In this document: one piece after another, positions 11,714 through 22,851 of the stretch | Layout of the letters: each line of letters starts with the position of its first letter | Numbering within the stretch: the first letter of the stretch is position 1 | Origin: Chryseobacterium sp. SNU WT5 | GTDB taxonomy: Bacteria; Bacteroidota; Bacteroidia; Flavobacteriales; Weeksellaceae | Direction: 5' to 3' | Assembly (NCBI RefSeq): GCF_007362475.1 | Contig: NZ_CP041687.1 | Location: 2,542,001 to 2,606,000 of the forward strand | DNA: 64,000 nt | Notes under the pieces: model-generated | The model's input: only the letters and a program-made list of their open reading frames with translations | What the model was told of the DNA's origin: nothing | Database searches by the model: none | Position numbers and translations under genes: made by a program

Positions 11714-11740
11714 GATATAACTTTCATATAGAATACTAGA

Positions 11741-11771
11741 AAACCACAGCATTGTCTGTGGTTTTTTATTA
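11741..11771 (+). terminator. Terminator after lpdA
   Basis: AAACCACAG pairs with CTGTGGTTT, followed by TTTTATT; it lies 28 bases after the lpdA stop. Confidence 0.85.
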
Positions 11772-11816
11772 GGATGAAATTTTGGCTTTAAGCAAGTCTA
11801 ATCATTCTATTTATTT

Positions 11817-11956
11817 GGGCAGCTTTAACCGTCTTCCACTCTCAAAACTAGGTACTAGTTTCGACGATTCAAATTAAAATAATAAGAGGATAAAGTCAAT
11901 CTTTTTTAGCCTTCGGTTTTGCCCACCTAAAAAAGGATTTCCGTTCAAGCCAGGCT
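11817..11956. repeat. REP-like flavobacterial repeat (degenerate), in the 532-base gap 11714-12245
   Basis: Starts GGGCAGCTTTAACCGTCTTC and ends ATTTCCGTTCAAGCCAGGC, with an inner inverted pair TTTTTTAGCC ... CCTAAAAAAGG. This gggc...gcc frame with imperfect inner palindromes is the same style as the elements at 36880 and 46941. No reading frame of interest is present. The rest of the gap (11957-12178) is AT-rich and I see nothing else in it. Confidence 0.5.
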
Positions 11957-12178
11957 GCAAAACTATTTCCTTTATTGTTTAGAATGATTTTATATCTGCC
12001 ATTGAAATACTCAATTTAACCAAATTGTTAATAGTAGATTTTAGATATGAAGTAACAAAGATTAAACAGAAATTAATTAAATCTTTTATAGGGTTAAATA
12101 ACGGTTTTTTTAACAATAAATCAAATTGTAGTTAAAATTTATTAGAAAGTGTAATTTTATTTATATATTTATTTAGCG

Positions 12179-12197
12179 GTTGTAAGTTACTTACAAC
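12179..12197. promoter_or_regulatory. Perfect 19-base palindrome upstream of cassette 1
   Basis: GTTGTAAGT-t-ACTTACAAC, a perfect inverted repeat 49 bases upstream of the ATG at 12246. It is placed like an operator or a 5'-leader hairpin for cassette 1; no similar copy precedes cassette 2, whose duplicated segment begins inside the start codon. Confidence 0.35.
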
Positions 12198-12245
12198 TTC
12201 TCGAAAAACACACAACCTACATTATTAACCTCTAAAATTAGGCGT

Positions 12246-12398
12246 ATGAGAAAAACAATATTTCTTGCAATCTTCGGATTTTTACTCTTGATGGTTTCCT
12301 ATAGAACAGAGGAAACGATTACACCACATGAAGCTCAAAAAAAGAACTGGCCTCTAAATCCTTATGGGAAGAGGATCTGCTTTACATTAAAAATGTAA
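12246..12398 (+). pseudogene. N-terminal leader of cassette 1, cut off by a frameshift in an A7 run
   Basis: ATG 12246 opens a signal-sequence-like start (MRKTIFLAIFGFLLLMVSYRT) that runs for 50 codons and stops at 12396. Adding one base in the A7 run at 12337-12343 (A8) restores a continuous frame: after ...EAQKK comes ELASKSLWEEDLLYIKN, leading without a stop into the frame of the 12473 reading frame. The leader is therefore the true N-terminus of cassette 1. The position where a lipobox Cys would be expected reads Tyr (VSYRTEE). The frame loss is shared by cassette 2. Confidence 0.7.
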
Positions 12399-12472
12399 AG
12401 AAAATATTTGAAACGAATTTTAATGAAATAAAATTCGAACAAGATTTTGGAAGATTAGATTGGGATTATGCC

Positions 12473-13537
12473 ATGACTTTTGGACAATTTGATGAGAGTT
12501 TTGTGAGCGTTCCTATTATTAAAAATGAAAAAATAGTGAGTGTAATGCAAGGGATACGGAATAAAAAAACGAATAAAGTTTTTTTCAGCCATACCGAGGA
12601 TACGGAATCTATTTCATTCTTCCAAAATATCATTTTTTCTAAAAGAATTTTGAAACCGCTCAAAGATACTGCTTACCCAAGCAATAATTCCACATCAAGA
12701 GCATATTGGCAACCTGTTACCAGTTGTAGTACCCGGACTTTAATTGTGGGATGTACCCAAGATGCAAGTGGTGCAAACTGCACTCCGATAGTTTCCACTA
12801 CAACAACTTGTACGACCACCTATATCTTTACAAACGATTATGATGATAGTGATGATGGTTATTATCCACCAGATGGCTACACCTATGATGGCACAAGACC
12901 GAATGTTTCTAATGAAGAGGAAGATCCGTGTGCGAAAATGTCTAAATATGGAAAAAGTGAAAAAACTAAAAGCTTAATGAGAAATTTAAAGGCTGAAACA
13001 TCAAGTAATAAAGAAAAGGGGTATACGCTAACAGATGAAAGCAATTCTTTAGTAGAAACTTATTTTGAGGGAGAAATTGGTAATAGCTTTCTTGATATAG
13101 ATGTTTCTTCTGGAGTGAATGTTATTATTCATTCTCATTATACTGGTCTACTCTCTATATTTTCCCCAGATGATATTTTCAATATTGCTGGTGCTTATAA
13201 AGGCGGATTTATTCGAGATCCAAATAATTTCGTATTGGGGGTGGTTACAGATTCGGGTACGCAATACTATTTAATAATTGATGATTTACAGAAGTTTTCT
13301 AACTTTGCTAATATGGTTTTACAATATGGTTTTGATATTTATAATCATATGTACGCAAACTTATCTAAGGTAAATCAATCTAATACTAATATACAAAACG
13401 AATATAATTTTTTGAATTATTTAAAATTAAATAACTCTGGATTAAGTGTCATGAAGGGTGATGCTGATATGAATTCTTGGTCAAAAATTGGAAAAGGTGA
13501 TAATAAAAATGAAATTAAAGAAGATAAATGTCCTTAA
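12473..13537 (+). CDS. Cassette 1: exported leader with C-terminal JAMM-like domain (body of the frameshifted gene)
   Basis: A 354-residue open frame, the body of the gene starting at 12246; its own ATG is internal. Residues 1-90 are a conserved globular part (MTFGQFDESFVSVPIIKN...), 80-115 a Cys/Thr-rich linker, 116-150 an acidic Tyr-rich linker ending DGTRPNV, and about 155-330 the C-terminal domain. This domain has H220-S-H222, then eight residues and S231-P-D-D234, close to the JAMM/JAB metal-binding pattern HxH-x7-S-x2-D of metallo-isopeptidases; JAB domains are known in polymorphic toxins. No Glu partner is assigned. The small exported partner follows 10 bases later. It may be a silenced effector; the function is inferred. 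Confidence 0.6.
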   Translation: MTFGQFDESFVSVPIIKNEKIVSVMQGIRNKKTNKVFFSHTEDTESISFFQNIIFSKRILKPLKDTAYPSNNSTSRAYWQPVTSCSTRTLIVGCTQDASGANCTPIVSTTTTCTTTYIFTNDYDDSDDGYYPPDGYTYDGTRPNVSNEEEDPCAKMSKYGKSEKTKSLMRNLKAETSSNKEKGYTLTDESNSLVETYFEGEIGNSFLDIDVSSGVNVIIHSHYTGLLSIFSPDDIFNIAGAYKGGFIRDPNNFVLGVVTDSGTQYYLIIDDLQKFSNFANMVLQYGFDIYNHMYANLSKVNQSNTNIQNEYNFLNYLKLNNSGLSVMKGDADMNSWSKIGKGDNKNEIKEDKCP

Positions 13538-13547
13538 AAAATAAATT

Positions 13548-14105
13548 ATGAAATTAATAATAAAAACACTAATCGTACTTATGGTAACTTTTGTGGGTGT
13601 GAATTTTTCAAATTGTAAGGCACAAAATCAAAGTAAAGATTTTGCAAATGGTGATAATTATTTAAACAATAATCTCGACAAGTTTGTCGGCACTTGGAAA
13701 TGGAGTAATAATGATGACTTATTTATATTAATCTTTAAAAAAGAAAATATAAAATTACCAATAGACAATGATGTTAGAGCAGATGCTCTTATTGGATTTC
13801 ACAAATTAGTGAAAAATGGAATAACGATAGAAGATAATACCCAATTTATCTATACTAATTATAACGAAAATAAAGGCTCTCTCTTTACCTTTGGTGAAGA
13901 AGAAAAACCTAATTTAATTGATCCCACAATATTTAATATATCTCGAAATAAGAATTTGAATATGATAATTGAATATATTGATAATAATCATTTGAAAATT
14001 ACATCAATAAAAAACACACCTGGTTTGAAATTAAATTTCCCAGGAAAACCTAAGTTTGATCCAACAATTATATACCCCGAAAATATAATTCTAACTAAAC
14101 AGTAA
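13548..14105 (+). CDS. Cassette 1 partner: exported DUF6705/lipocalin-like protein, candidate immunity protein
   Basis: 185 residues, starting 10 bases after the cassette 1 stop. An N-terminal signal sequence (MKLIIKTLIVLMVTFVGVNF...CKAQ) directs export, probably to the periplasm. The mature part begins DKFVGTWKWSNNDDLFILIFKKEN, the 'GTW.w....f.l.l.k' opening of small lipocalin-like beta-barrels called DUF6705 in flavobacteria, and ends with IIYPENIILTKQ. The partners of cassettes 3 and 4 are clear relatives (GTWEW..., ...LPQNIILIKQ). Because the same family always follows the same C-terminal JAMM type, an immunity or chaperone role is proposed. No enzymatic motif is seen. Confidence 0.7.
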   Translation: MKLIIKTLIVLMVTFVGVNFSNCKAQNQSKDFANGDNYLNNNLDKFVGTWKWSNNDDLFILIFKKENIKLPIDNDVRADALIGFHKLVKNGITIEDNTQFIYTNYNENKGSLFTFGEEEKPNLIDPTIFNISRNKNLNMIIEYIDNNHLKITSIKNTPGLKLNFPGKPKFDPTIIYPENIILTKQ

Positions 14106-14468
14106 AAAAAGCACCACTATACGCAACCGATCTACTATAAGTCTTCGCTTCTCCTTTTAGTACATCGTTAGGCGGATTTCATTTGCTGATGTGTGAAGCT
14201 CTTCGCTTCACGAAGCCCCTTCTCACATCAACTAAGCTTTTTCGTTGCGTACGAAGCACGAATAATGAAACCCGGGTTGTACGGAACCGCTTCCACTTCT
14301 GCAATACAATGCATTTGTTGTAAAAAAATATCGTCTCATTACGGTTTCCCGTAATGAGGTACAAATTAGATTTGCTATTTTAGGTAAAATAAAATATTGA
14401 GCGTAAAACTCACCTATTTCCTGCTCTTTCGCTCTTAACTGTGAAGTAAAATGGAAAAATTAAAACCC
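14106..14468. other. Non-coding gap between cassettes 1 and 2 with two palindromes
   Basis: No credible gene. It contains a nested palindrome at 14187-14230 (outer TGATGTG/CACATCA, inner GTGAAGC/GCTTCAC) and a perfect hairpin at 14335-14358 (CTCATTACGG-tttc-CCGTAATGAG). Neither has a following T run. A 61-codon frame on the minus strand crosses both and has no protein-like character. Confidence 0.5.
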
Positions 14469-14694
14469 TGAGAAAAACAATATTTCTTGCAATCTTCGGA
14501 TTTTTACTCTTGATGGTTTCCTATAGAACAGAGGAAACGATTACACCACATGAAGCTCAAAAAAAGAACTGGCCTCTAAATCCTTATGGGAAGAGGATCT
14601 GCTTTACATTAAAAATGTAAAGAAAATATTTGAAACGAATTTTAATGAAATAAAATTCGAACAAGATTTTGGAAGATTAGATTGGGATTATGCC
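14469..14694 (+). pseudogene. Duplicated N-terminal leader of cassette 2, without a start codon
   Basis: An essentially identical copy of 12247-12472. The duplicated stretch begins inside the start codon: cassette 1 reads cgtATGAGAAAA, cassette 2 reads acccTGAGAAAA, so the ATG is lost. The A7 run is present at 14559-14565 with the same missing base, so the leader and the body are in different frames here too. Confidence 0.7.
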
Positions 14695-15795
14695 ATGACT
14701 TTCGGACAATTTGATGAGAGTTTTGTGAGCGTTCCTATTATTAAAAATGAAAAAGTAGTGAGTGTAATGCAAGGAATAAGGAATAAAAAAACGAACAAAG
14801 TTTTTTTCAGCCATACCGAGGATACGGAATCTATTTCATTCTTCCAGAATATCATTTTTTCTAAAAGACTTTTGAAACCGCTCAAAGATACTGCTTACCC
14901 AAGCAATAATTCAACATCAAGAGCATATTGGCAACCTGTTACCAGCTGTAGTACCCGGACTTTAATCGTGGGATGTACCCAAGATGCAAGTGGTGCAAAC
15001 TGCACTCCGATAGTTTCCTCTACAACAACTTGTACAACCACCTATATCTTTACAAACGATTATGATGATAGTGATGATGGTTATTACCCGCCAGATGGCT
15101 ACACCTATGATGGCACAAGACCTAATGTTACTGATGATGAAGATCCGTGTGCGAAAGCGAAAGCGGGTTCTACACGAGCAACTACAACTTCAAAATCTAC
15201 CGCATTTAATACTGCAAAAACAACTATTACTGGCATGAAAAATGGAAAAGAAAATGGAGTGGTTTTTGGAAATGTGAATTATGAGACAAAATCTACGTCC
15301 GTTCAAACGGGAGGAACAAGTTCTGGCACATTAACTCATACTTTTTCCGATCCAATTGCAGATTTACATAATCATCCTGGAAATAATCCACCTTCAACTG
15401 GAGATTTGTATGTTTTAATTAGTAATCAGCAACAATTTACAAATTATAGCACAAGATATGTTGTAACATTAAATGGAACAACTTATGCATTGGTTGTAAC
15501 AGATAAAACTGCAATGAATATATTTCTTAAAAATTATCCACCCAGTATTACCTCTAACCCATATGGTGGAAATTTTGTCAATTTTCCTCAACCGCTTTTC
15601 AATGAGTGGGATGATATTTCATTCTATAACAATGATAATCAAGAAATGGCACTTTCTGTTATTTTAGATAAGTATAATTCTGGAATCATGCTCACCAAAA
15701 TGGATAATAATGGAAATTTTAAAAAAGTTAATTATATTAGCAATACAGATACTGCTGGAACTACGACATATACAAATACACCATGTCCAAATTAA
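14695..15795 (+). CDS. Cassette 2: exported leader with a different C-terminal JAMM-like domain (body of the frameshifted gene)
   Basis: A 366-residue open frame. Residues 1-150 are nearly identical to cassette 1 up to DGTRPNV; the sequence then changes abruptly after EDPCAKA to an unrelated C-terminal domain. That domain has DLHNHPGNNPPSTGDLYVL: H225-N-H227, then six residues, S234 and D237, a pattern very close to RadC/JAB 'HxHP....PS..D' and to JAB domains described in polymorphic toxins. It has no start of its own upstream of the internal ATG (see the leader entry), so expression of a full-length protein is doubtful. The partner gene overlaps or follows directly at 15783/15807. Confidence 0.6.
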   Translation: MTFGQFDESFVSVPIIKNEKVVSVMQGIRNKKTNKVFFSHTEDTESISFFQNIIFSKRLLKPLKDTAYPSNNSTSRAYWQPVTSCSTRTLIVGCTQDASGANCTPIVSSTTTCTTTYIFTNDYDDSDDGYYPPDGYTYDGTRPNVTDDEDPCAKAKAGSTRATTTSKSTAFNTAKTTITGMKNGKENGVVFGNVNYETKSTSVQTGGTSSGTLTHTFSDPIADLHNHPGNNPPSTGDLYVLISNQQQFTNYSTRYVVTLNGTTYALVVTDKTAMNIFLKNYPPSITSNPYGGNFVNFPQPLFNEWDDISFYNNDNQEMALSVILDKYNSGIMLTKMDNNGNFKKVNYISNTDTAGTTTYTNTPCPN

Positions 15796-15806
15796 AAATA
15801 ATCAAA

Positions 15807-16247
15807 ATGAAAAATTTAAATAAAGCATTCACTCTTATTATAGTTCTACTTTCTTTTATGGCTTGTTCTCAAACAACTATGAAGTCTGTAAGTGATGCGA
15901 AAAAATTAGAAATTAATAAGAAAAACTTTGTTGGGAAACCTTTAAGTTATCTACTTAAAAATATAAATGTTGAAATTAAGTCAATTATTCCCTCACCAAA
16001 TAAAAATTTCAATGAAATAAATAGAATTAGTTTTTTGTTTGTTTCTAAATCTATTTATAAAAAGTCAACTGCAAAAGATATAGAAGAAAAACCAACAAGA
16101 ATTACTGTAAATTTTAATCAAAACGGTGATTTAAAAGGAGATAAATGTACTTATGATAAACCTGAATGTACAGAGTGGACAAAAGAAGATGAAAAAAATC
16201 TTGGCAAATTAATCATTTATGACATTTATGTTTCTGGTAAAAATTAA
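15807..16247 (+). CDS. Cassette 2 partner: small lipoprotein, candidate immunity protein
   Basis: 146 residues from ATG 15807. An in-frame ATG at 15783 overlaps the cassette 2 stop, but the 15807 start gives a clean lipoprotein signal (MKNLNKAFTLIIVLLSFMACSQ, lipobox Cys in MACS). The mature part reads NFVGKPLSYLLKNINVEIKSI...NRISFLF and ends LIIYDIYVSGKN; it has no resemblance to the DUF6705-like partners of the other cassettes. It begins 11 bases after the stop of cassette 2. The change of partner family together with the change of C-terminal domain supports cognate pairing. The function is otherwise unknown. Confidence 0.7.
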   Translation: MKNLNKAFTLIIVLLSFMACSQTTMKSVSDAKKLEINKKNFVGKPLSYLLKNINVEIKSIIPSPNKNFNEINRISFLFVSKSIYKKSTAKDIEEKPTRITVNFNQNGDLKGDKCTYDKPECTEWTKEDEKNLGKLIIYDIYVSGKN

Positions 16248-16428
16248 TGCCACTATAGCCAATAACTAAGCTTTCGTTTTGTCTGCAAGACAAGAAATGA
16301 ATTAACAATCACCGAATCCTTTAAAAAAAATAAATATTGAGGTAAAGCCCGTTGAACGGAACCTTCGGTGGCTTTTCAGCGGTATTTTGGTGGGTTATGG
16401 AGTTGTCGTTTTTAGAATTTAGATACCC

Positions 16429-16459
16429 AAAGCAGTTTTTTAGAAGAACTGCTTTTTTT
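16429..16459 (+). terminator. Intrinsic terminator between cassettes 2 and 3
   Basis: AAGCAGTT pairs with AACTGCTT across a 9-base loop, followed by seven T. It ends the cassette 2 transcript about 180 bases after the partner gene. The remaining stretch 16248-16428 carries no gene that I can support. Confidence 0.75.
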
Positions 16460-16499
16460 GGGAACTGATGTGAGATTTTTTGAAGCACTCGAACATTGA

Positions 16500-17248
16500 T
16501 GTGGGATGTACGGGCGATGCAAGTGACTCAAATTGCGTTCCCTTAGCTTCTTCTACAACAACTTGTACGACCACCTATATCTTTACAAACGATTATGATG
16601 ATAGTGATGATGGTTATTATCCACCAGATGGCTACACCTATGATGGCACAAGACCTAATGTTTCTAATGAAGAGGAAGTCCGTGTGCGAAAATGTCTAAA
16701 TATGGGAAGGATCCAAAAACTAAAATTTTAATGTCTGATTTGAAAACAAAAACTAACCAGACTAAGGAATATGCTTATACTTTAAATAAGGAAAATGGCG
16801 AAGTTAAAGAAACCGCATATATTGGGGAAGATAATGGTCTACATGATTTATATATAGATAACGCACCGGTAAATGCTTATATCCATTCACATGATGTTGG
16901 TGCACTTTCTATTTTTTTCTCCTGATGATTTGTTTGCAATGGCTGGTTTATACAAAAGTGGAAATATAAAAGAATTAGAAAATTTTGTAATGGGTGTTGT
17001 AACTAATTCTGGTACTCAATATTATTTAGTGATTGATAATATAGAAAACTTTGGAAATTTTGCAGAGAGCTTGTTCTTATAAAATTACAACGACAAATTC
17101 AGTATCTTCCAATGAAAATCAATTTCTAAATTATTTGTCACAAAATAGTTCTGGTCTCAAATTATTTAAAGGGTCAGACAATATGAAAAACTGGCAATTG
17201 CTAGAAAAAGATAAAAATGGAAATGTGATTCCAAAGGATTGCCCATAA
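16500..17248 (+). pseudogene. Cassette 3: truncated and frameshifted JAMM-domain gene
   Basis: Only the end of the leader remains: similarity to cassettes 1 and 2 starts at GTGGGATGTA (16500), at the Cys/Thr-rich linker. Three lesions follow: loss of one A in GAGGAAGTCCGTG (16677 region; cassette 1 reads GAAGATCCG), one extra T in the T7 run at 16912-16918, which separates the HSH from the SPDD of the JAMM motif, and a 59-base deletion after GAGAGCTTGTT near 17075 relative to cassette 4. Corrected, it would read IHSHDVGALSIFSPDDL, as in cassette 4. Four short overlapping frames result. The partner gene 28 bases downstream is intact. Confidence 0.8.
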
Positions 17249-17276
17249 GTTAAACAATAAATTAAATAAAGAATAA

Positions 17277-17786
17277 ATGAAAAATACAATAAAAATAATA
17301 ATGACCCTATTACCCATTTTAGCTTGTACTATGTGTTTTTCCCAAAAACCTGGAGATAATATTTCAGATCCATATGTTGATAAATTCATAGGTACTTGGG
17401 AATGGAAAAATGGAAATAATAATTTGGTTTTGATTTTAAAAAAGGAAAATATACTCTATCCAACTGGTATGACTTCTGATGTTATTTTGGGATTTCATCA
17501 GTTAATAGAAAATGGAAATGTAATTGAAGATAATATTAGCTTTTCAAATACAAATTTCAATAATAGAAAGTGGAGTATTTTAGGGAATTCAGATGATAAT
17601 AATTCTAATTTATTAGTAGTAGGAATAATTCATAAAGCTAAAAATAAAGGGATTGAAAGTGAAATTCAATATATTGACTCCACACATATAAAAATCATAA
17701 GCATTAAAAACTCTCCTGGTACAAAGTTAAAACCATATGATAAAACAATTTCTTTACCACAGAATATAATTTTAATAAAACAGTAG
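17277..17786 (+). CDS. Cassette 3 partner: exported DUF6705/lipocalin-like protein
   Basis: 169 residues with a signal sequence (MKNTIKIIMTLLPILACTMC, possible lipobox Cys at 17 or 20) and the family opening DKFIGTWEWKNGNNNLVLILKKEN (residues 36-58, broken here only for description). It ends SLPQNIILIKQ. Residues 1-87 are almost identical to the cassette 4 partner (one change, Thr63/Asn63), residues 88-135 are quite different, and the C-terminus is again nearly the same. It stays intact although the effector gene in front of it is destroyed, which is what a retained immunity gene would look like. Confidence 0.7.
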   Translation: MKNTIKIIMTLLPILACTMCFSQKPGDNISDPYVDKFIGTWEWKNGNNNLVLILKKENILYPTGMTSDVILGFHQLIENGNVIEDNISFSNTNFNNRKWSILGNSDDNNSNLLVVGIIHKAKNKGIESEIQYIDSTHIKIISIKNSPGTKLKPYDKTISLPQNIILIKQ

Positions 17787-17865
17787 AATACCAGTACAGC
17801 CAACAAAGTATTTGCAAAAAAATCCCCGAAATCATATGTTGAATAAGGGGCTCTCTTCGTAAGTA
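17787..17865 (+). repeat. Repeat unit behind the cassette 3 partner
   Basis: AATACCAGTACAGCCAACAA and the following 55 bases recur almost unchanged at 19180-19262 behind the cassette 4 partner, showing that the duplicated unit includes the 3' flank. Confidence 0.7.
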
Positions 17866-18641
17866 CCCAACCCTTCCCTTAGCTTCTTCTACGACAACAT
17901 GTACGACCACCTATGTCTTTGCAAACGATTATGATGATAGTGATGATGGTTATTATCCACCAGATGGCTACACCTATGATGGCACAAGACCTAATGTCAC
18001 TGATGATGAAGATCCGTGTGCGAAAATGTCTAAATATGGAAAGGATCCAAAAACAAAAGCTTTAATGTCTGATTTGAAAACAAAAACTAACCAGACTAAG
18101 GAATATGCTTATACTTTAAATAAGGAAAATGGCGAAGTTAAAGAAACCGCATATATTGGGGAAGATAATGGACTACATGATTTATATATAGATAACGCAC
18201 CGGTAAATGCTTATATCCATTCACATGATGTTGGTGCACTTTCTATTTTTTTCTCCTGATGATTTGTTTGCATTGGCTGGTTTATACAAAAGTGGAAATA
18301 TAAAAGAATTAGAAAATTTTGTAATGGGTGTTGTAACTAATTCTGGTACTCAATATTATTTAGTGATTGATAATATAGAAAACTTTGGAAATTTTGCAGA
18401 GAGCTTGTTTGATGGAAATACATTTGATAATGATATGATTAATGCATACAAAAACATGTATGTCAAAGCTTATAAAATTACAACGACAAATTCAGTATCT
18501 TCTAATGAAAATCAATTTCTAAATTATTTGTCACAAAATAGTTCTGGTCTCAAATTATTTAAAGGGTCAGACAATATGAAAAACTGGCAATTGCTAGAAA
18601 AAGATAAAAATGGAAATGTGATTCCAAAGGATTGCCCATAA
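17846..18641 (+). pseudogene. Cassette 4: truncated and frameshifted JAMM-domain gene
   Basis: Leader similarity begins near 17873 in the Thr-rich linker (ASSTTTCTTTYVFANDYDD), without a start codon; the frame is open from about 17846 through DGTRPNV and the C-terminal domain to 18259. One extra T in the T7 run at 18246-18252 breaks the frame exactly between HSH and SPDD; the second half continues in the other frame to 18641 (SPDDLFALAGLYKSGN...). It is a near-identical duplicate of cassette 3 without the 59-base deletion. Cassettes 3 and 4 thus share the T7 lesion, but the lost A is specific to cassette 3. Confidence 0.8.
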
Positions 18642-18669
18642 GTTAAACAATAAATTAAATAAAGAATAA

Positions 18670-19179
18670 ATGAAAAATACAATAAAAATAATAATGACCC
18701 TATTACCCATTTTAGCTTGTACTATGTGTTTTTCCCAAAAACCTGGAGATAATATTTCAGATCCATATGTTGATAAATTCATAGGTACTTGGGAATGGAA
18801 AAATGGAAATAATAATTTGGTTTTGATTTTAAAAAAGGAAAATATACTCTATCCAAATGGTATGACTTCTGATGTTATTTTGGGATTTCATCAGTTAATA
18901 GAAAATGGAAATGTAATTGAAGATAATATAAGATATTCTTCTTCCGGGTTTAAAGATAAAAAATGGAGCATAATAGGGAATTCTATAGATAATATACCAA
19001 ATAGTTTGTATGTTTTTTTAAATCATGATAGTAAAAATAAAAGTATTGAAAGTGAAATTCAATATATTAATTCTACACATATAAAAATATTGAGCATTAA
19101 AAATTCTCCTGGTACAAAATTGAAACCCTTTGATAAAACAATATCTTTACCTGAAAATGTAATTTTAATACAACAGTAG
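18670..19179 (+). CDS. Cassette 4 partner: exported DUF6705/lipocalin-like protein
   Basis: 169 residues, paralogue of the cassette 3 partner with the same signal sequence and the same GTWEW opening. It differs in the middle (residues 88-135, RYSSSGFKDKKWSIIGNSID... instead of SFSNTNFNNRKWSILGNSDD...) and then rejoins at IESEIQYI. It starts 28 bases after the end of the broken effector gene. Proposed role: neutralising or assisting the JAMM-domain protein; inferred only from position and co-variation. Confidence 0.7.
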   Translation: MKNTIKIIMTLLPILACTMCFSQKPGDNISDPYVDKFIGTWEWKNGNNNLVLILKKENILYPNGMTSDVILGFHQLIENGNVIEDNIRYSSSGFKDKKWSIIGNSIDNIPNSLYVFLNHDSKNKSIESEIQYINSTHIKILSIKNSPGTKLKPFDKTISLPENVILIQQ

Positions 19180-19262
19180 AATACCAGTACAGCCAACAAA
19201 GTATTTGCAAAAAAATCCCCGAAATCACTCCATGAATAAGGGCTTTCTTCGCAAATACCCAA
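19180..19262 (+). repeat. Repeat unit behind the cassette 4 partner
   Basis: Second copy of the 3' flank at 17787-17865. In the first copy cassette 4 resumes just behind this unit; here it leads into the unrelated gap 19263-19519, where I see no gene. Confidence 0.7.
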
Positions 19263-19406
19263 CGGTTGGCTGTAATTTTATCAAAATACAATGAATAAAA
19301 AAAAATCACGAGATTAAAGATCAATTTGAATTATTCGAAAACTTTGTAATGAAGACAAGATAATTCAAGATGAAAAAATTCTACTTCAACTAAAAACAAA
19401 CTAAAT

Positions 19407-19429
19407 GACGCGGATTTGTAATCCGTGTC
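19407..19429. repeat. Short palindromic repeat, left flank of the 19520 gene
   Basis: GACGCGGATT-tgt-AATCCGTGTC, a 10-base stem with one G-U pair. A related copy lies at 19932-19953, immediately behind the gene at 19520-19930. Confidence 0.6.
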
Positions 19430-19519
19430 TCTTCACCAATACTTTCCCATCTAATAATTTAACTTCAAAAGCAAAATTATAAAACCATTAGCCGAAACCT
19501 ATTAATAAATCGATTAAAA

Positions 19520-19930
19520 ATGAAAATAAATAACGAACTCCTCACGAAAGGATTTATTGTAGCTGGATTGATGAATATTTCTGGTGTTTTAACTTTTTCC
19601 AGAATTTTCACCAATCCCGTTATTACCGAATTTGACAATCAAGCAATGTCAAATTTTGGATTATTAATGATTGTGCTTTGGGGTTTTGCTTATATCACTG
19701 TTTCTAAAAATTTTTATAATTTAAAATGGCTCGTTGCCGTATTTACCCTTGAAAAATTGATTTATGCAACACATTGGACAAAATGGATGACAACAAATAA
19801 TCTTACAGATGTACTTGAAAAAGATAAAATGGCTGGAATATTTTATACAATTTACGGCATCAATGATTGGATCTTTTTTGTATTTTTTTTATTTGTTTTT
19901 ATCCGTTTAACACGTGAAAGATTAAACTAA
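19520..19930 (+). CDS. Integral membrane protein of unknown function, four predicted helices
   Basis: 136 residues with four hydrophobic segments: about 10-28 (GFIVAGLMNISGVLTFSRIF), 45-63 (FGLLMIVLWGFAYITVS), 68-84 (KWLVAVFTLEKLIYATHW) and 110-130 (YTIYGINDWIFFVFFLFVF). The ends are charged (MKINNELLTK, RLTRERLN). The pattern NLKWLVAVFTLEKLIYATHW looks conserved-protein-like, but I cannot name a family. The gene is bracketed by two copies of the GACGCGGATT palindrome, which may mark a small mobile or inserted unit. Confidence 0.65.
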   Translation: MKINNELLTKGFIVAGLMNISGVLTFSRIFTNPVITEFDNQAMSNFGLLMIVLWGFAYITVSKNFYNLKWLVAVFTLEKLIYATHWTKWMTTNNLTDVLEKDKMAGIFYTIYGINDWIFFVFFLFVFIRLTRERLN

Positions 19931-19931
19931 T

Positions 19932-19953
19932 GACGCGGATTTTAAATCCGTAC
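19932..19953. repeat. Short palindromic repeat, right flank of the 19520 gene
   Basis: GACGCGGATTT-TAAATCCGTAC, same element as at 19407-19429. It begins 1 base after the stop codon and could also act as a hairpin at the transcript end. Confidence 0.6.
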
Positions 19954-19964
19954 ATATTATACTT

Positions 19965-20137
19965 TATCCTCGCTACCGCACGAATCCTTTCATGTGTTCT
20001 CATTTAAAAAGTTACAGACTTTCTATCCAAACAAACAAAACTATAATTTAAAATTGTGGTTTTTTAATCGGTGAAATTTTCTATCTTAACACTAAGTTTT
20101 GACAAAAGATTATCAAAATTTTTCCTACATTTTTTAG
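19965..20137. repeat. About 170-base intergenic repeat, copy 1
   Basis: Begins TATCCTCGCTACCGCACGAA and ends at a TTTTTCCTACA stretch. It matches 21443-21617 over its full length with scattered differences and contains a hairpin with a T run (around 20036-20065) and the phrase CTATCTTAACAcTAAGTTTTGAC. It fills most of the gap 19931-20293. Confidence 0.65.
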
Positions 20138-20293
20138 GATGCCTAAAAAGGGAAATAGAAAAACAATAATTTAATTTTAAATTGGTGGAGATGGTTGCAA
20201 TCTAACACGTTTTCCACAAACATATCAATAGTACTATCAACATAAAAATTAAAAGTTATCTTCAAGGCGATAACTTCATTTAAAAAAAAATCA

Positions 20294-21421
20294 ATGATGC
20301 ACAAAATTACTTTTTTTATCCTGGTCTTGTTTTTTGCTAGAAGCAATGCACAAGAATTAATTATTCCTTATGAAAATCCATTTGGAATGCCTGTTGTTAA
20401 TGTATCTGTGAATGGCAGTATGCATCAATTTGTTTTTGATACCGGAGCGTATAAAACAGTAATTAATTCACAAGTTTTTTCTGGTCTTTCAATTTCAAGC
20501 AAAATAGATGATGTGGGAGGAATTAATAGTGTGAGAAAATCTATGGATCAGGTTAAGTTTTCTTTTAATTTTCTCGACAAGCAGTTTGATAAAGAAGTCA
20601 TTTATACTGATTTAAGTATGCTTTCGGAATTTAACTGTACTAATTCAACTATTAGCGGCATTATTGGACGTGATGTTATGGAAGATTATATAATTGAGAT
20701 TAATCCCGATAAAAAAGAACTTATTTTTTATAATCCCTCTAGTTTTAACGAAGATAAAATCGCTGATTTTACTAAAATAAAATTGCGAAAGTCAAATAAT
20801 CCTCGTTTTCATGTTAAAATTGGGAAACAGGGGCGATATGTATTGTTTGATACAGGAAGTGCTGGTAAATTAAGGATATCAGATTACAAACTTGACCAAT
20901 ATATAAAAACAACGAAACATATTGCATATAAGAAAAAAGGAAGTAGTTGGGGTATTCACGGATTCAATAATAAGGAGGATGTAATTCATACAATATACAA
21001 TGCAGAAGTACAAATAGGGAAACTAAAAATAGAAAATCAAACCGTAGAAACCTCTAGAAATGATCTTAATAATATGGGGTTTGGATTTATCAGTCAGTTT
21101 ATATCCTATTTAGATCTAAAAGGTAAAAAGCTATATTTAAAACAAATTGGCAAAGATTATATTAGCGAAACTCCCTTGAAAAATTTAGGTTTTTATACCA
21201 GATATGATTCTGAAAAAAAGAAAACTCATATTGTAAGTCTTTCAACAAAAAATAATCAATTGAAATTAGGGGATCATATCATTAGTATTAATGGAGAAAA
21301 ACCGCCTGTTAACAATTGTGAAATGTATTCTTTTCTTCAAAAATTCTACAACATTCCCCTTAAAATTAAACTCGAAAGAGAAAATAAGGTAATTGAAATA
21401 GCGCAATCTGTTCAAAATTAA
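20294..21421 (+). CDS. Exported retropepsin-like aspartic protease with PDZ domain
   Basis: 375 residues. An N-terminal signal sequence (MMHKITFFILVLFFARSNA, cleavage before QELI) directs export. There are two aspartic-protease motifs, VFDTGAYKTVI (Asp49) and VLFDTGSAGKLRI (Asp186), as expected for a two-lobed pepsin-like or tandem retropepsin fold, and GIIGRDVMEDYIIEINPDKKEL, which corresponds to the 'ilG.d.l....v.id' strand. The last 70 or so residues form a PDZ-like domain (LGDHIISINGEKPP). Such proteins are common in Bacteroidota and are thought to work in the periplasm; the substrate is unknown. The two copies of a 170-base repeat flank it. Confidence 0.85.
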   Translation: MMHKITFFILVLFFARSNAQELIIPYENPFGMPVVNVSVNGSMHQFVFDTGAYKTVINSQVFSGLSISSKIDDVGGINSVRKSMDQVKFSFNFLDKQFDKEVIYTDLSMLSEFNCTNSTISGIIGRDVMEDYIIEINPDKKELIFYNPSSFNEDKIADFTKIKLRKSNNPRFHVKIGKQGRYVLFDTGSAGKLRISDYKLDQYIKTTKHIAYKKKGSSWGIHGFNNKEDVIHTIYNAEVQIGKLKIENQTVETSRNDLNNMGFGFISQFISYLDLKGKKLYLKQIGKDYISETPLKNLGFYTRYDSEKKKTHIVSLSTKNNQLKLGDHIISINGEKPPVNNCEMYSFLQKFYNIPLKIKLERENKVIEIAQSVQN

Positions 21422-21442
21422 AACTTTTAATGGAAAGATAAA

Positions 21443-21617
21443 TATCCTCGCTACCGCACGAATCCTTTCGTGTGGTTTCACTTAAACCGTACAATCTTTA
21501 TATCCACTTAAACAAAACCACAACTTGAAATTGTGGTTTTTTAATTCCAAAAAATTACTATCTTAACATTAAGTTTTGACAGAGGAGTAGCAAAAGTTTT
21601 CCTTTACAATTTTTAGC
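21443..21617. repeat. About 170-base intergenic repeat, copy 2, with internal terminator
   Basis: Same element as 19965-20137, in the same orientation. It contains CACGAA/TTCGTG at its left end and a good terminator at 21515-21545 (AAACCACAA paired with TTGTGGTTT, followed by six T). It ends the transcript of the aspartic protease gene. Confidence 0.7.
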
Positions 21618-21639
21618 AGATTAATTAAAAAAAATATAA

Positions 21640-21852
21640 ATGGACACCTTGTTTTGGATCTGCGTGAAAATAATGCAGGTAATGAGAAAAATGCTTGGTA
21701 TCACCTACCAGAAATTGAATGTACTGCTTTTCGTGCTGCTTCATTCTGCAATCACATTGGTTTTATTCTATCAATATAGAAAATATAAAAAATTATATAA
21801 AGATCTTCTTGCAAAACCTAACCAAAATAAAAATTCTTTATCTGATAATTAG
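21640..21852 (+). CDS. Small membrane protein, 70 residues, unknown
   Basis: 70 residues with a hydrophobic helix at about 28-46 (LNVLLFVLLHSAITLVLFYQ) followed by a basic stretch (YRKYKKLYKDLLAKPNQNK). An amphipathic first helix (LFWICVKIMQVMRKML) precedes it. It lies between two copies of the repeat element and carries no recognisable family motif. Codon composition is ordinary for this genome; it could be real or a chance frame. Confidence 0.4.
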   Translation: MDTLFWICVKIMQVMRKMLGITYQKLNVLLFVLLHSAITLVLFYQYRKYKKLYKDLLAKPNQNKNSLSDN

Positions 21853-21880
21853 TATTTGTAATTTTTACTTTAATCAATGT

Positions 21881-21946
21881 TAAAACGGCACCACATCTTA
21901 ACATTGTGGTTTTTAATTCCCAAAAAGTCCTATCTTAACTTCAAAT
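21881..21946. repeat. Partial third copy of the intergenic repeat
   Basis: Only the right part is present: a short hairpin (ACCACA...TTGTGGT at 21889-21910) followed by TTTAATTCCCAAAAAGTCCTATCTTAAC, comparable with the same section of the 21443 copy. Confidence 0.55.
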
Positions 21947-21954
21947 TAATAGCA

Positions 21955-22851
21955 ATAAAAATTAAATACTTTTTACTTATTTTTCTTTTTTCTGACACAG
22001 CAGTTTTTTCGCAAACCAAAAGTGAAAATGTTGTTCCGAACGAGAATTTAATAACGGAGAACATTCCTGCAATTCCCAAAAGTTTAAATGAAAAAATCAA
22101 GAAATATACGGAAAGCAGAAGTGCCAACTTTACCGCAATCCACCCGAACGGAAAAGAATTGATTATGGTGACGCGGTTTGCGTCTACCATTCAACTGCAT
22201 CATTTAAACTAACCTTTAGGCAACAGAAAACAGGTCACCTTTTTTGACGAACCTGTAAATTCCGCAGATTACGAATCAACGGAAGGAAAATACTTGGTCT
22301 ATTCAAAAGATATTGGTGGAAATGAATTCGGACAACTTTTTAGATTAGATTTAAACACCATGGAATCTACATTGTTAACCGATGGCGGCAGATCTCAAAA
22401 TGGTGGAATGCGCTGGAAAAAAGATTGTTCAGGATTTTATTTTTCATCGACTAAAAGAAATGGCGGCGATCGTGATATTTATTACATGAATCCATTGAAA
22501 CCAAACGGAACCAAATTGATTCTGGAATTGAAAGGTGGCGGTTGGGGAATTTCTGATCTTTCAGCAGACGGCAAAAAAATTATTGTTAGCGAATATGTTT
22601 CAGCGAATGAATCTTACATGTATTTATTCGATACAGAAACCAAAAAACCAATGTTCATTATTCAGGGAATCAACGATGCGCGAGTTCCAGTAACAGAGGC
22701 AATTCAAATGCGTGATAAATTGAAAGCACAGGGAAATACGGTTTGGTATTTAGAAGCTAAAAATGAAGGTCATGGTTTCCGCAAAAAAGAAAATGTAGAT
22801 TTTCAGAGATTGGCGGTGATCAAATTTATGCAGGAATATCTTTTAAAATAG
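21955..22851 (+). pseudogene. S9-family (prolyl oligopeptidase-like) peptidase, decayed
   Basis: Remains of an exported S9 peptidase. The signal region KIKYFLLIFLFSDTAVFSQ is preceded by ATA (21955-21957) where an ATG would fit. The propeller part follows (FTAIHPNGKELIMVTR...), is interrupted by an in-frame TAA at about 22210, and resumes in the same frame at PLGNRKQVTFFDEPVN up to YLFDTETKKP. There it jumps straight to the end of the hydrolase domain (FIIQGINDARVPVTEAIQM...EGHGFRKKENV). The Asp (INDARVP) and His (GHGF) of the triad are there, but the Ser region is gone. About 300 residues remain of a normal 600-700. Confidence 0.85.

What the first reader, a model, noticed from the sequence alone, without database searches (positions are those of the whole stretch)
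12246..19179. Four-cassette array of exported JAMM-domain proteins, each with a small exported partner
Four units in the same direction combine a common leader (Cys/Thr-rich linker, acidic Tyr/Gly linker, DGTRPNV) with a C-terminal domain having an HxH...S..D pattern, followed 10-30 bases later by a small exported protein. A constant leader, a swappable C-terminal domain with a metalloprotease-like site and an adjacent small gene are the signature of polymorphic effector/immunity systems; JAB domains are known among such toxins. The leader lacks known PAAR, Rhs, T9SS or LXG elements, so the delivery route would be new to me.
Basis: partly seen in the sequence, partly recalled or inferred. Interest (0 to 1): 0.82.

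Follow-up and report, generated by a model that had tools for sequence, protein, structure and literature searches.

The report
Broken array of surface toxin-immunity pairs
This flavobacterial genome carries four neighbouring units, each pairing a broken gene for a likely surface-anchored, metalloprotease-like toxin with an intact small gene that would protect against it; relatives keep unbroken versions with swapped toxin tips and are predicted to use them against neighbouring bacteria.

Summary
Units 1 and 2 share a 95%-identical leader but carry different C-terminal domains (24% identical). Both tails have the E...HxH...SxxD pattern; JAMM-A was modelled with a JAMM/MPN-like fold, and JAMM-B is its profile homologue. 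Units 3 and 4 keep only the end of the leader. All four toxin genes are broken: in units 1-2 the signal-peptide piece lies in another frame and has Tyr at the lipobox position; in units 3-4 the frame breaks inside the JAMM motif. All four partner genes are open. In 246 family genomes the leader recurs in 56. Tails found with the JAMM-A profile are followed by a DUF6705 gene in 29 of 30 loci, JAMM-B tails in 0 of 30. Intact relatives are lipoproteins with acidic residues at +4/+5 after the lipid cysteine; +4 resembles surface SusD more than BamD. I conclude: a Bacteroidota class of lipoprotein-anchored, mostly JAMM-tipped polymorphic toxins with exported immunity proteins (DUF6705, a predicted lipocalin-like barrel). 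This copy is a decayed accessory island. Toxicity, metal binding, delivery and target are untested.

The parts
12246..12398 (+). U1 signal-peptide piece (50 aa), out of frame with the rest of the leader; Tyr at the lipobox position
12332..13537 (+). U1 open frame: leader rest, Cys/Thr-rich and acidic linker, JAMM-A tail from 12926; first ATG at 12473 (354 aa)
12337..12343 (+). run of seven A near the U1 frame change (same run in U2 at 14559)
13548..14105 (+). U1 partner, DUF6705, 185 aa, exported, predicted immunity
14468..14620 (+). U2 signal-peptide piece, out of frame, CTG at the place of the ATG
14554..15795 (+). U2 open frame: same leader, JAMM-B tail from 15145; first ATG at 14695 (366 aa)
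15783..16247 (+). U2 partner, 154-aa exported protein, not DUF6705
16480..17248 (+). U3 leaderless JAMM-A tail, broken in several frames with a deletion near 17075
17277..17786 (+). U3 partner, DUF6705, 169 aa, open
17867..18641 (+). U4 leaderless JAMM-A tail, frame broken inside the JAMM motif
18670..19179 (+). U4 partner, DUF6705, 169 aa, open; first ~240 nt nearly identical to U3, rest diverged
11714..21880 (.). variable, low-GC segment between conserved lpd and S9-peptidase/patatin genes; array absent from this site in 6 of 6 same-genus genomes examined

Best explanation
The four units are the broken remains of what is likely a polymorphic toxin-immunity array, whose intact relatives are predicted to be surface-anchored lipoprotein toxins tipped with a JAMM metalloprotease-like domain. 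Inferred working model: in intact relatives the leader (signal peptide, lipid Cys, acidic export signal, linker) would display the protein on the outer membrane. The JAMM tip would reach the envelope of a neighbouring cell on contact or membrane transfer and cut a protein or peptide bond there. The exported partner (DUF6705, a predicted lipocalin-like barrel, or another family for JAMM-B tips) would bind and block the cognate tip in the producer's own periplasm. New tips arrive as tail-plus-partner cassettes that likely recombine at the conserved linker before the tail. In this genome all four toxin frames are broken and all four partner genes are open, so the array now could serve, if anything, as protection. 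Shown: sequence anatomy, tail-partner linkage, tail swapping, broken frames. Predicted: both folds, surface display. Inferred and untested: toxicity, metal, target, delivery, immunity.
Confidence: 0.72

Rival explanations
1. Secreted housekeeping or nutritional proteases with a dedicated inhibitor. The JAMM lipoprotein digests external protein or peptidoglycan for the producer, and the small partner is a self-protection inhibitor, as staphostatin is for staphopain.
Against: Partner kind differs between JAMM-A and JAMM-B; tails of similar leaders are often under 30% identical; leaderless tails and up to four partner genes in a row; patchy spread.
Confidence: 0.15
2. Phase-variable locus. The breaks near runs of seven A or seven T are reversible switches (or are read by slippage), and units 1-2 are switched off at present rather than dead.
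For: U1/U2 frame change near an A-run at 12337/14559; U3/U4 break at a T-run at 16912/18246; units share each break pairwise.
Against: Other lesions are not at runs: Tyr at the lipobox position, CTG at the U2 start, U3 deletion and U3/U4 leader loss. 36 A/T runs of at least 7 lie unbroken in 31 long window ORFs (4 of these are in the two array ORFs).
Confidence: 0.12
3. Assembly or sequencing error makes the genes look broken; they are intact.
For: The U1/U2 and U3/U4 breaks fall at homopolymer runs.
Against: Each break is present in two copies about 1.3-2.2 kb apart; long ORFs around hold many such runs intact; lipobox, start-codon and deletion lesions are not run errors.
Confidence: 0.07
4. 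Not a conflict system: structural or adhesive surface lipoproteins that carry an inactive MPN-like scaffold domain.
For: MPN domains without catalysis exist (recalled knowledge).
Against: E, both H, S and D of the JAMM site are invariant in both tail alignments.
Confidence: 0.06

Closest known systems
SitA/SitI of Myxococcus (lipoprotein polymorphic toxins moved by outer-membrane exchange; PMC5562445 passages, PMC8546572 abstract)
   Same: Lipoprotein leader of several unrelated families, swapped C-terminal tip, immunity gene downstream, several cassettes per genome
   Different: SitA tips described are nucleases acting in the cytoplasm; here tips are JAMM-like and partners carry signal peptides; no TraAB or SitB equivalent was looked for
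Tox-JAB-1 with Imm65 (Zhang 2012, PMC3482391, passages)
   Same: JAB/JAMM tip in Bacteroidetes with an exported (lipobox) immunity partner
   Different: Tox-JAB-1 sits behind RHS repeats; PF15659 does not match the window proteins or own genome; leaders here are short lipoproteins. Imm65 was not compared with DUF6705 beyond Pfam naming
Tox-JAB-2 / DUF4329 (PF14220)
   Same: E, HxH, S, D pattern; one JAMM-B relative (L052) shows a weak match (20.7 bits)
   Different: Below the 28.6-bit cut-off and no match for the window proteins
TANFOR/BaCT polymorphic toxins of Bacteroidetes (PMC7073777, passages)
   Same: Bacteroidetes N-terminal delivery region with swapped toxin tips and downstream immunity
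   Different: Large proteins proposed as T9SS substrates, DNase tips; no TANFOR match here
Bacteroidetes lipoprotein export signal, LES (PMC5080379, passages)
   Same: Acidic residues at +4/+5 after the lipid Cys
   Different: Here +3 is mostly N, S, H or T rather than K; display not tested

Membership tests
Polymorphic toxin system (Zhang 2012) | Shared N-terminal region with exchanged C-terminal domain | tested here: met
   74 of 128 leader-similar pairs have tails under 30% identical; window pair 95%/24%; exchanged tails stay almost all within the JAMM superfamily
Polymorphic toxin system (Zhang 2012) | Partner gene directly downstream and specific to the tail type | tested here: met
   DUF6705 after 29 of 30 JAMM-A-profile loci, 0 of 30 JAMM-B; finer specificity among JAMM-A variants not tested
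Polymorphic toxin system (Zhang 2012) | Stand-alone toxin cassettes and runs of immunity genes | tested here: met
   Seen in some of 13 fetched stretches chosen for clustered hits, e.g. L177, L178, L181, L185
Polymorphic toxin system (Zhang 2012) | Tail is toxic and partner neutralises it | not testable with these tools
   needs expression and competition assays
Polymorphic toxin system (Zhang 2012) | Complete exported toxin gene in the window | tested here: not met
   all four toxin frames broken
JAMM/MPN superfamily | E, HxH, S, D site | tested here: met
   invariant in 12 of 12 and 9 of 9 sequences
JAMM/MPN superfamily | Fold | tested here: met
JAMM/MPN superfamily | Zinc binding and peptidase activity | not testable with these tools
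   no ligand modelling or assay
Tox-JAB-1 (PF15659) | Profile match | tested here: not met
   no match for window proteins or own genome (1 of 100 relatives matches)
Tox-JAB-1 (PF15659) | RHS repeats before the toxin | tested here: not met
   no RHS family listed for the window proteins or relatives scanned
Tox-JAB-2 / DUF4329 (PF14220) | Profile match over cut-off | tested here: not met
   only L052 at 20.7 of 28.6 bits
SitA-type lipoprotein toxins | Type II signal peptide on the toxin | tested here: met
   in relatives: 97 distinct sequences with signal plus Cys, 31 without, 4 repeats dropped, of 132 taken, by a simple rule; window copies lack it
SitA-type lipoprotein toxins | Homology of the leader to SitA escort domains; TraAB transfer | not tested
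   not compared
LES surface lipoproteins | Acidic +4/+5 after Cys | tested here: met
   +4 0.90, +5 0.69 of 97; SusD +4 0.79, +5 0.03 of 29; BamD +4 0.27, +5 0 of 30
DUF6705 (PF20448) | Profile over cut-off | tested here: met
   88.4, 85.4, 78.5 bits against 24.4
TANFOR toxins | TANFOR domain (TIGR02542) | tested here: not met
   no such NCBIfam match in 9 toxin-type proteins scanned

The most novel reading that the evidence does not exclude
Bacteroidota carry an undescribed, widespread class of contact weapons: small surface lipoproteins with about a dozen interchangeable lipoprotein leaders and JAMM metalloprotease tips that attack the envelope of neighbours, each disarmed by an exported barrel protein (DUF6705) that inhibits its tip; the window shows such an arsenal after the weapons have decayed and the shields were kept.
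Probability: 0.55. Interest if true: 0.8.

Novelty: new variant of a known kind. Interest (0 to 1): 0.62.

Why it matters
It gives a testable function to DUF6705, a family for which one search found no paper in the held library. It points to lipoprotein-displayed, JAMM-tipped toxins as an antagonism system in a phylum where (from recall and search listings) mainly T6SS, BSAP-type and proposed T9SS toxins are discussed. It also offers many natural tail-partner pairs for learning what a JAMM domain cuts outside the ubiquitin world, and the window shows partners kept open beside broken toxins.

Tried and rejected
Prok-JAB (PF14464) in the own genome: 0 matches. Pfam and NCBIfam on window proteins: only DUF6705 above cut-off; the rest are weak chance-like hits; ten relatives gave nothing above cut-off in Pfam. 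The one match of JAMM-A to PDB sequences (8ozh, E 0.87) and none for JAMM-B were set aside. P0009 tail: I read it by eye as a permuted papain-like domain, but Pfam gives no support, so it is not counted. Named-genome scan: 9 loci; by the window-only profile 5 of 9 have DUF6705 downstream, L079 looks broken with no partner found, L081 has a 665-aa gene instead, L082 and L083 have GTW/EGEW-type partners below threshold. L075 and L078 are the same contigs by length as L011 and L012, so those are not independent. The DUF6705 profile was built from alignment A6, which holds the three window proteins, partners of two tested JAMM-A loci (L075, L078) and L082, which I added by eye; the profile from window proteins alone gives 27 of 30. 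The 30 JAMM-A loci include variants far from the window's tail (E down to about 1e-13). The signal-plus-Cys rule is crude: at least P0022 is probably a false hit. dN/dS of U3 versus U4 partner (3' part dN 0.20, dS 0.77) fits purifying selection but may predate the toxin decay, so it is not used as proof of retained function. Single-linkage clusters (13 leader clusters, 1 tail cluster) are biased because most proteins were collected by tail. tRNA and Rfam scans of the region were empty. Literature: searches listed no paper that I could see describing this leader family or DUF6705 as immunity; of the papers I saw listings, passages of four and the outline with abstract of two, and the library lacks most subscription papers.

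Full report
What is in the window. Four tandem units lie on the + strand between 12246 and 19179. U1 has a signal-like piece (12246-12398), an open frame from 12332 holding the rest of the leader, and a JAMM-A tail that ends at 13537; a DUF6705 gene follows at 13548-14105. U2 repeats the leader (93-100% identical DNA per 60-nt block, 12278-12877 against 14500-15099), then switches at the linker end to a different tail, JAMM-B, and a 154-aa partner that is not DUF6705 (15783-16247). U3 and U4 begin inside the Cys/Thr-rich linker and carry JAMM-A-type tails and DUF6705 partners (17277-17786, 18670-19179).

All four toxin genes are broken. In U1 and U2 the signal piece and the leader are in different frames, with the change near a run of seven A; the residue at the lipobox position is Tyr, where the relatives with a complete N-terminus have Cys; in U2 the codon at the start position is CTG. 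In U3 and U4 the frame changes at a run of seven T inside the JAMM motif, and U3 has further breaks and a deletion. Intact relatives exist; some relatives are broken too (L014, L017, L085). The four partner genes are open. As a control against a general homopolymer artefact, 31 ORFs of at least 250 aa in the window hold 36 runs of at least seven A or T without a break (4 of the 36 lie in the two array ORFs).

Modularity. Of 121 distinct proteins taken, 99 could be split into leader and tail. Among 128 pairs with leaders at least 50% identical, 74 have tails under 30%; conversely 143 pairs have tails at least 50% and leaders under 30% identical. The same leader type in two species of one genus (L012, L047; leader 61%, tail 25%) carries JAMM-A with DUF6705 in one and JAMM-B with the U2-type partner in the other. 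Against a broad-spectrum polymorphic system: of 29 leader loci, 25 have an ORF over 300 aa; 24 of these end in a JAMM-like domain and one (L088) in a SprT-like domain. Thirteen stretches, chosen mostly because hits cluster there, include complete genes followed by shorter, apparently leaderless tails (L178, L181) and up to four DUF6705 genes in a row (L177, L185). In the window, U3 and U4 share near-identical toxin remains and about the first 240 nt of the partner gene, after which identity drops to 65-92% per block, as recombination inside the partner gene would give.

Where the intact proteins would sit. Of 132 relatives taken, 97 distinct ones have a signal peptide and Cys by a simple rule (31 do not, 4 repeats dropped). 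After the Cys, acidic residues stand at +4 in 90% and +5 in 69%. SusD (surface) of the same family has 79% at +4 but 3% at +5, with 55% at +3 and 62% at +6 (n=29 of 30); BamD (periplasmic side) has 27% at +4, 0 at +5 and 80% at +6 (n=30). Two or more acidic residues at +2 to +6: 69 of 97, 26 of 29 and 6 of 30. The +4/+5 placement matches the lipoprotein export signal described for Capnocytophaga (PMC5080379, passages), except that +3 is rarely Lys. Surface display is therefore predicted, not shown.

Setting. The array lies in a low-GC stretch (27-35%) between conserved lpd and S9-peptidase/patatin genes. In 6 of 6 same-genus genomes examined (of 35 searched besides the own) the array is absent from this site and the gap differs in length and content. 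This is an accessory island at a variable site. The window's genome falls in the same family group as contigs that match Epilithonimonas tenax and Chryseobacterium lacus by length, i.e. Weeksellaceae.

Interpretation. Steps shown: anatomy, broken frames, linkage, swapping. Predicted: JAMM fold, barrel fold, surface display. Inferred: toxicity, envelope target (because the partners are exported), delivery by contact or membrane transfer (by analogy with SitA, PMC5562445 and PMC8546572), inhibition by the partner, residual protective role of the window's partners. Confidence 0.72 for a toxin-immunity system in the lineage with decayed toxins here.

Noticed in passing
L052 1189-2124, L057, L058, L062: JAMM-B-like tails behind a 4Fe-4S ferredoxin domain (Pfam Fer4 shown for L052; the others by similar N-termini) with no signal peptide, partner gene -6 to 4 nt downstream; a cytoplasmic relative of unknown meaning.
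   Followed up: partly
L088: The same leader family carries a SprT-like zinc metallopeptidase tail (PF10263, 28.7 bits, cut-off 25.6) instead of JAMM.
   Followed up: partly
window 21877-22851: An S9-type peptidase gene (name recalled) is split and about 1 kb shorter than the single 647-aa ORF of a relative (L218 2031-3974).
   Followed up: partly
window 20013-20126 and 21490-21603: An 80% direct repeat of 114 nt flanks a 375-aa aspartyl-protease-like ORF (20294-21421, named by eye), perhaps another mobile or exchanged unit.
   Followed up: no
L179 4093-4758 and L075 5310-5699: Leaderless ORFs begin with a recurring MDNPxxTWEQFxN motif, one of them before a JAMM-A tail; perhaps the linker of another delivery family.
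   Followed up: no
L081: A Sphingobacterium JAMM-A-like gene is followed by a 665-aa gene instead of DUF6705.
   Followed up: no
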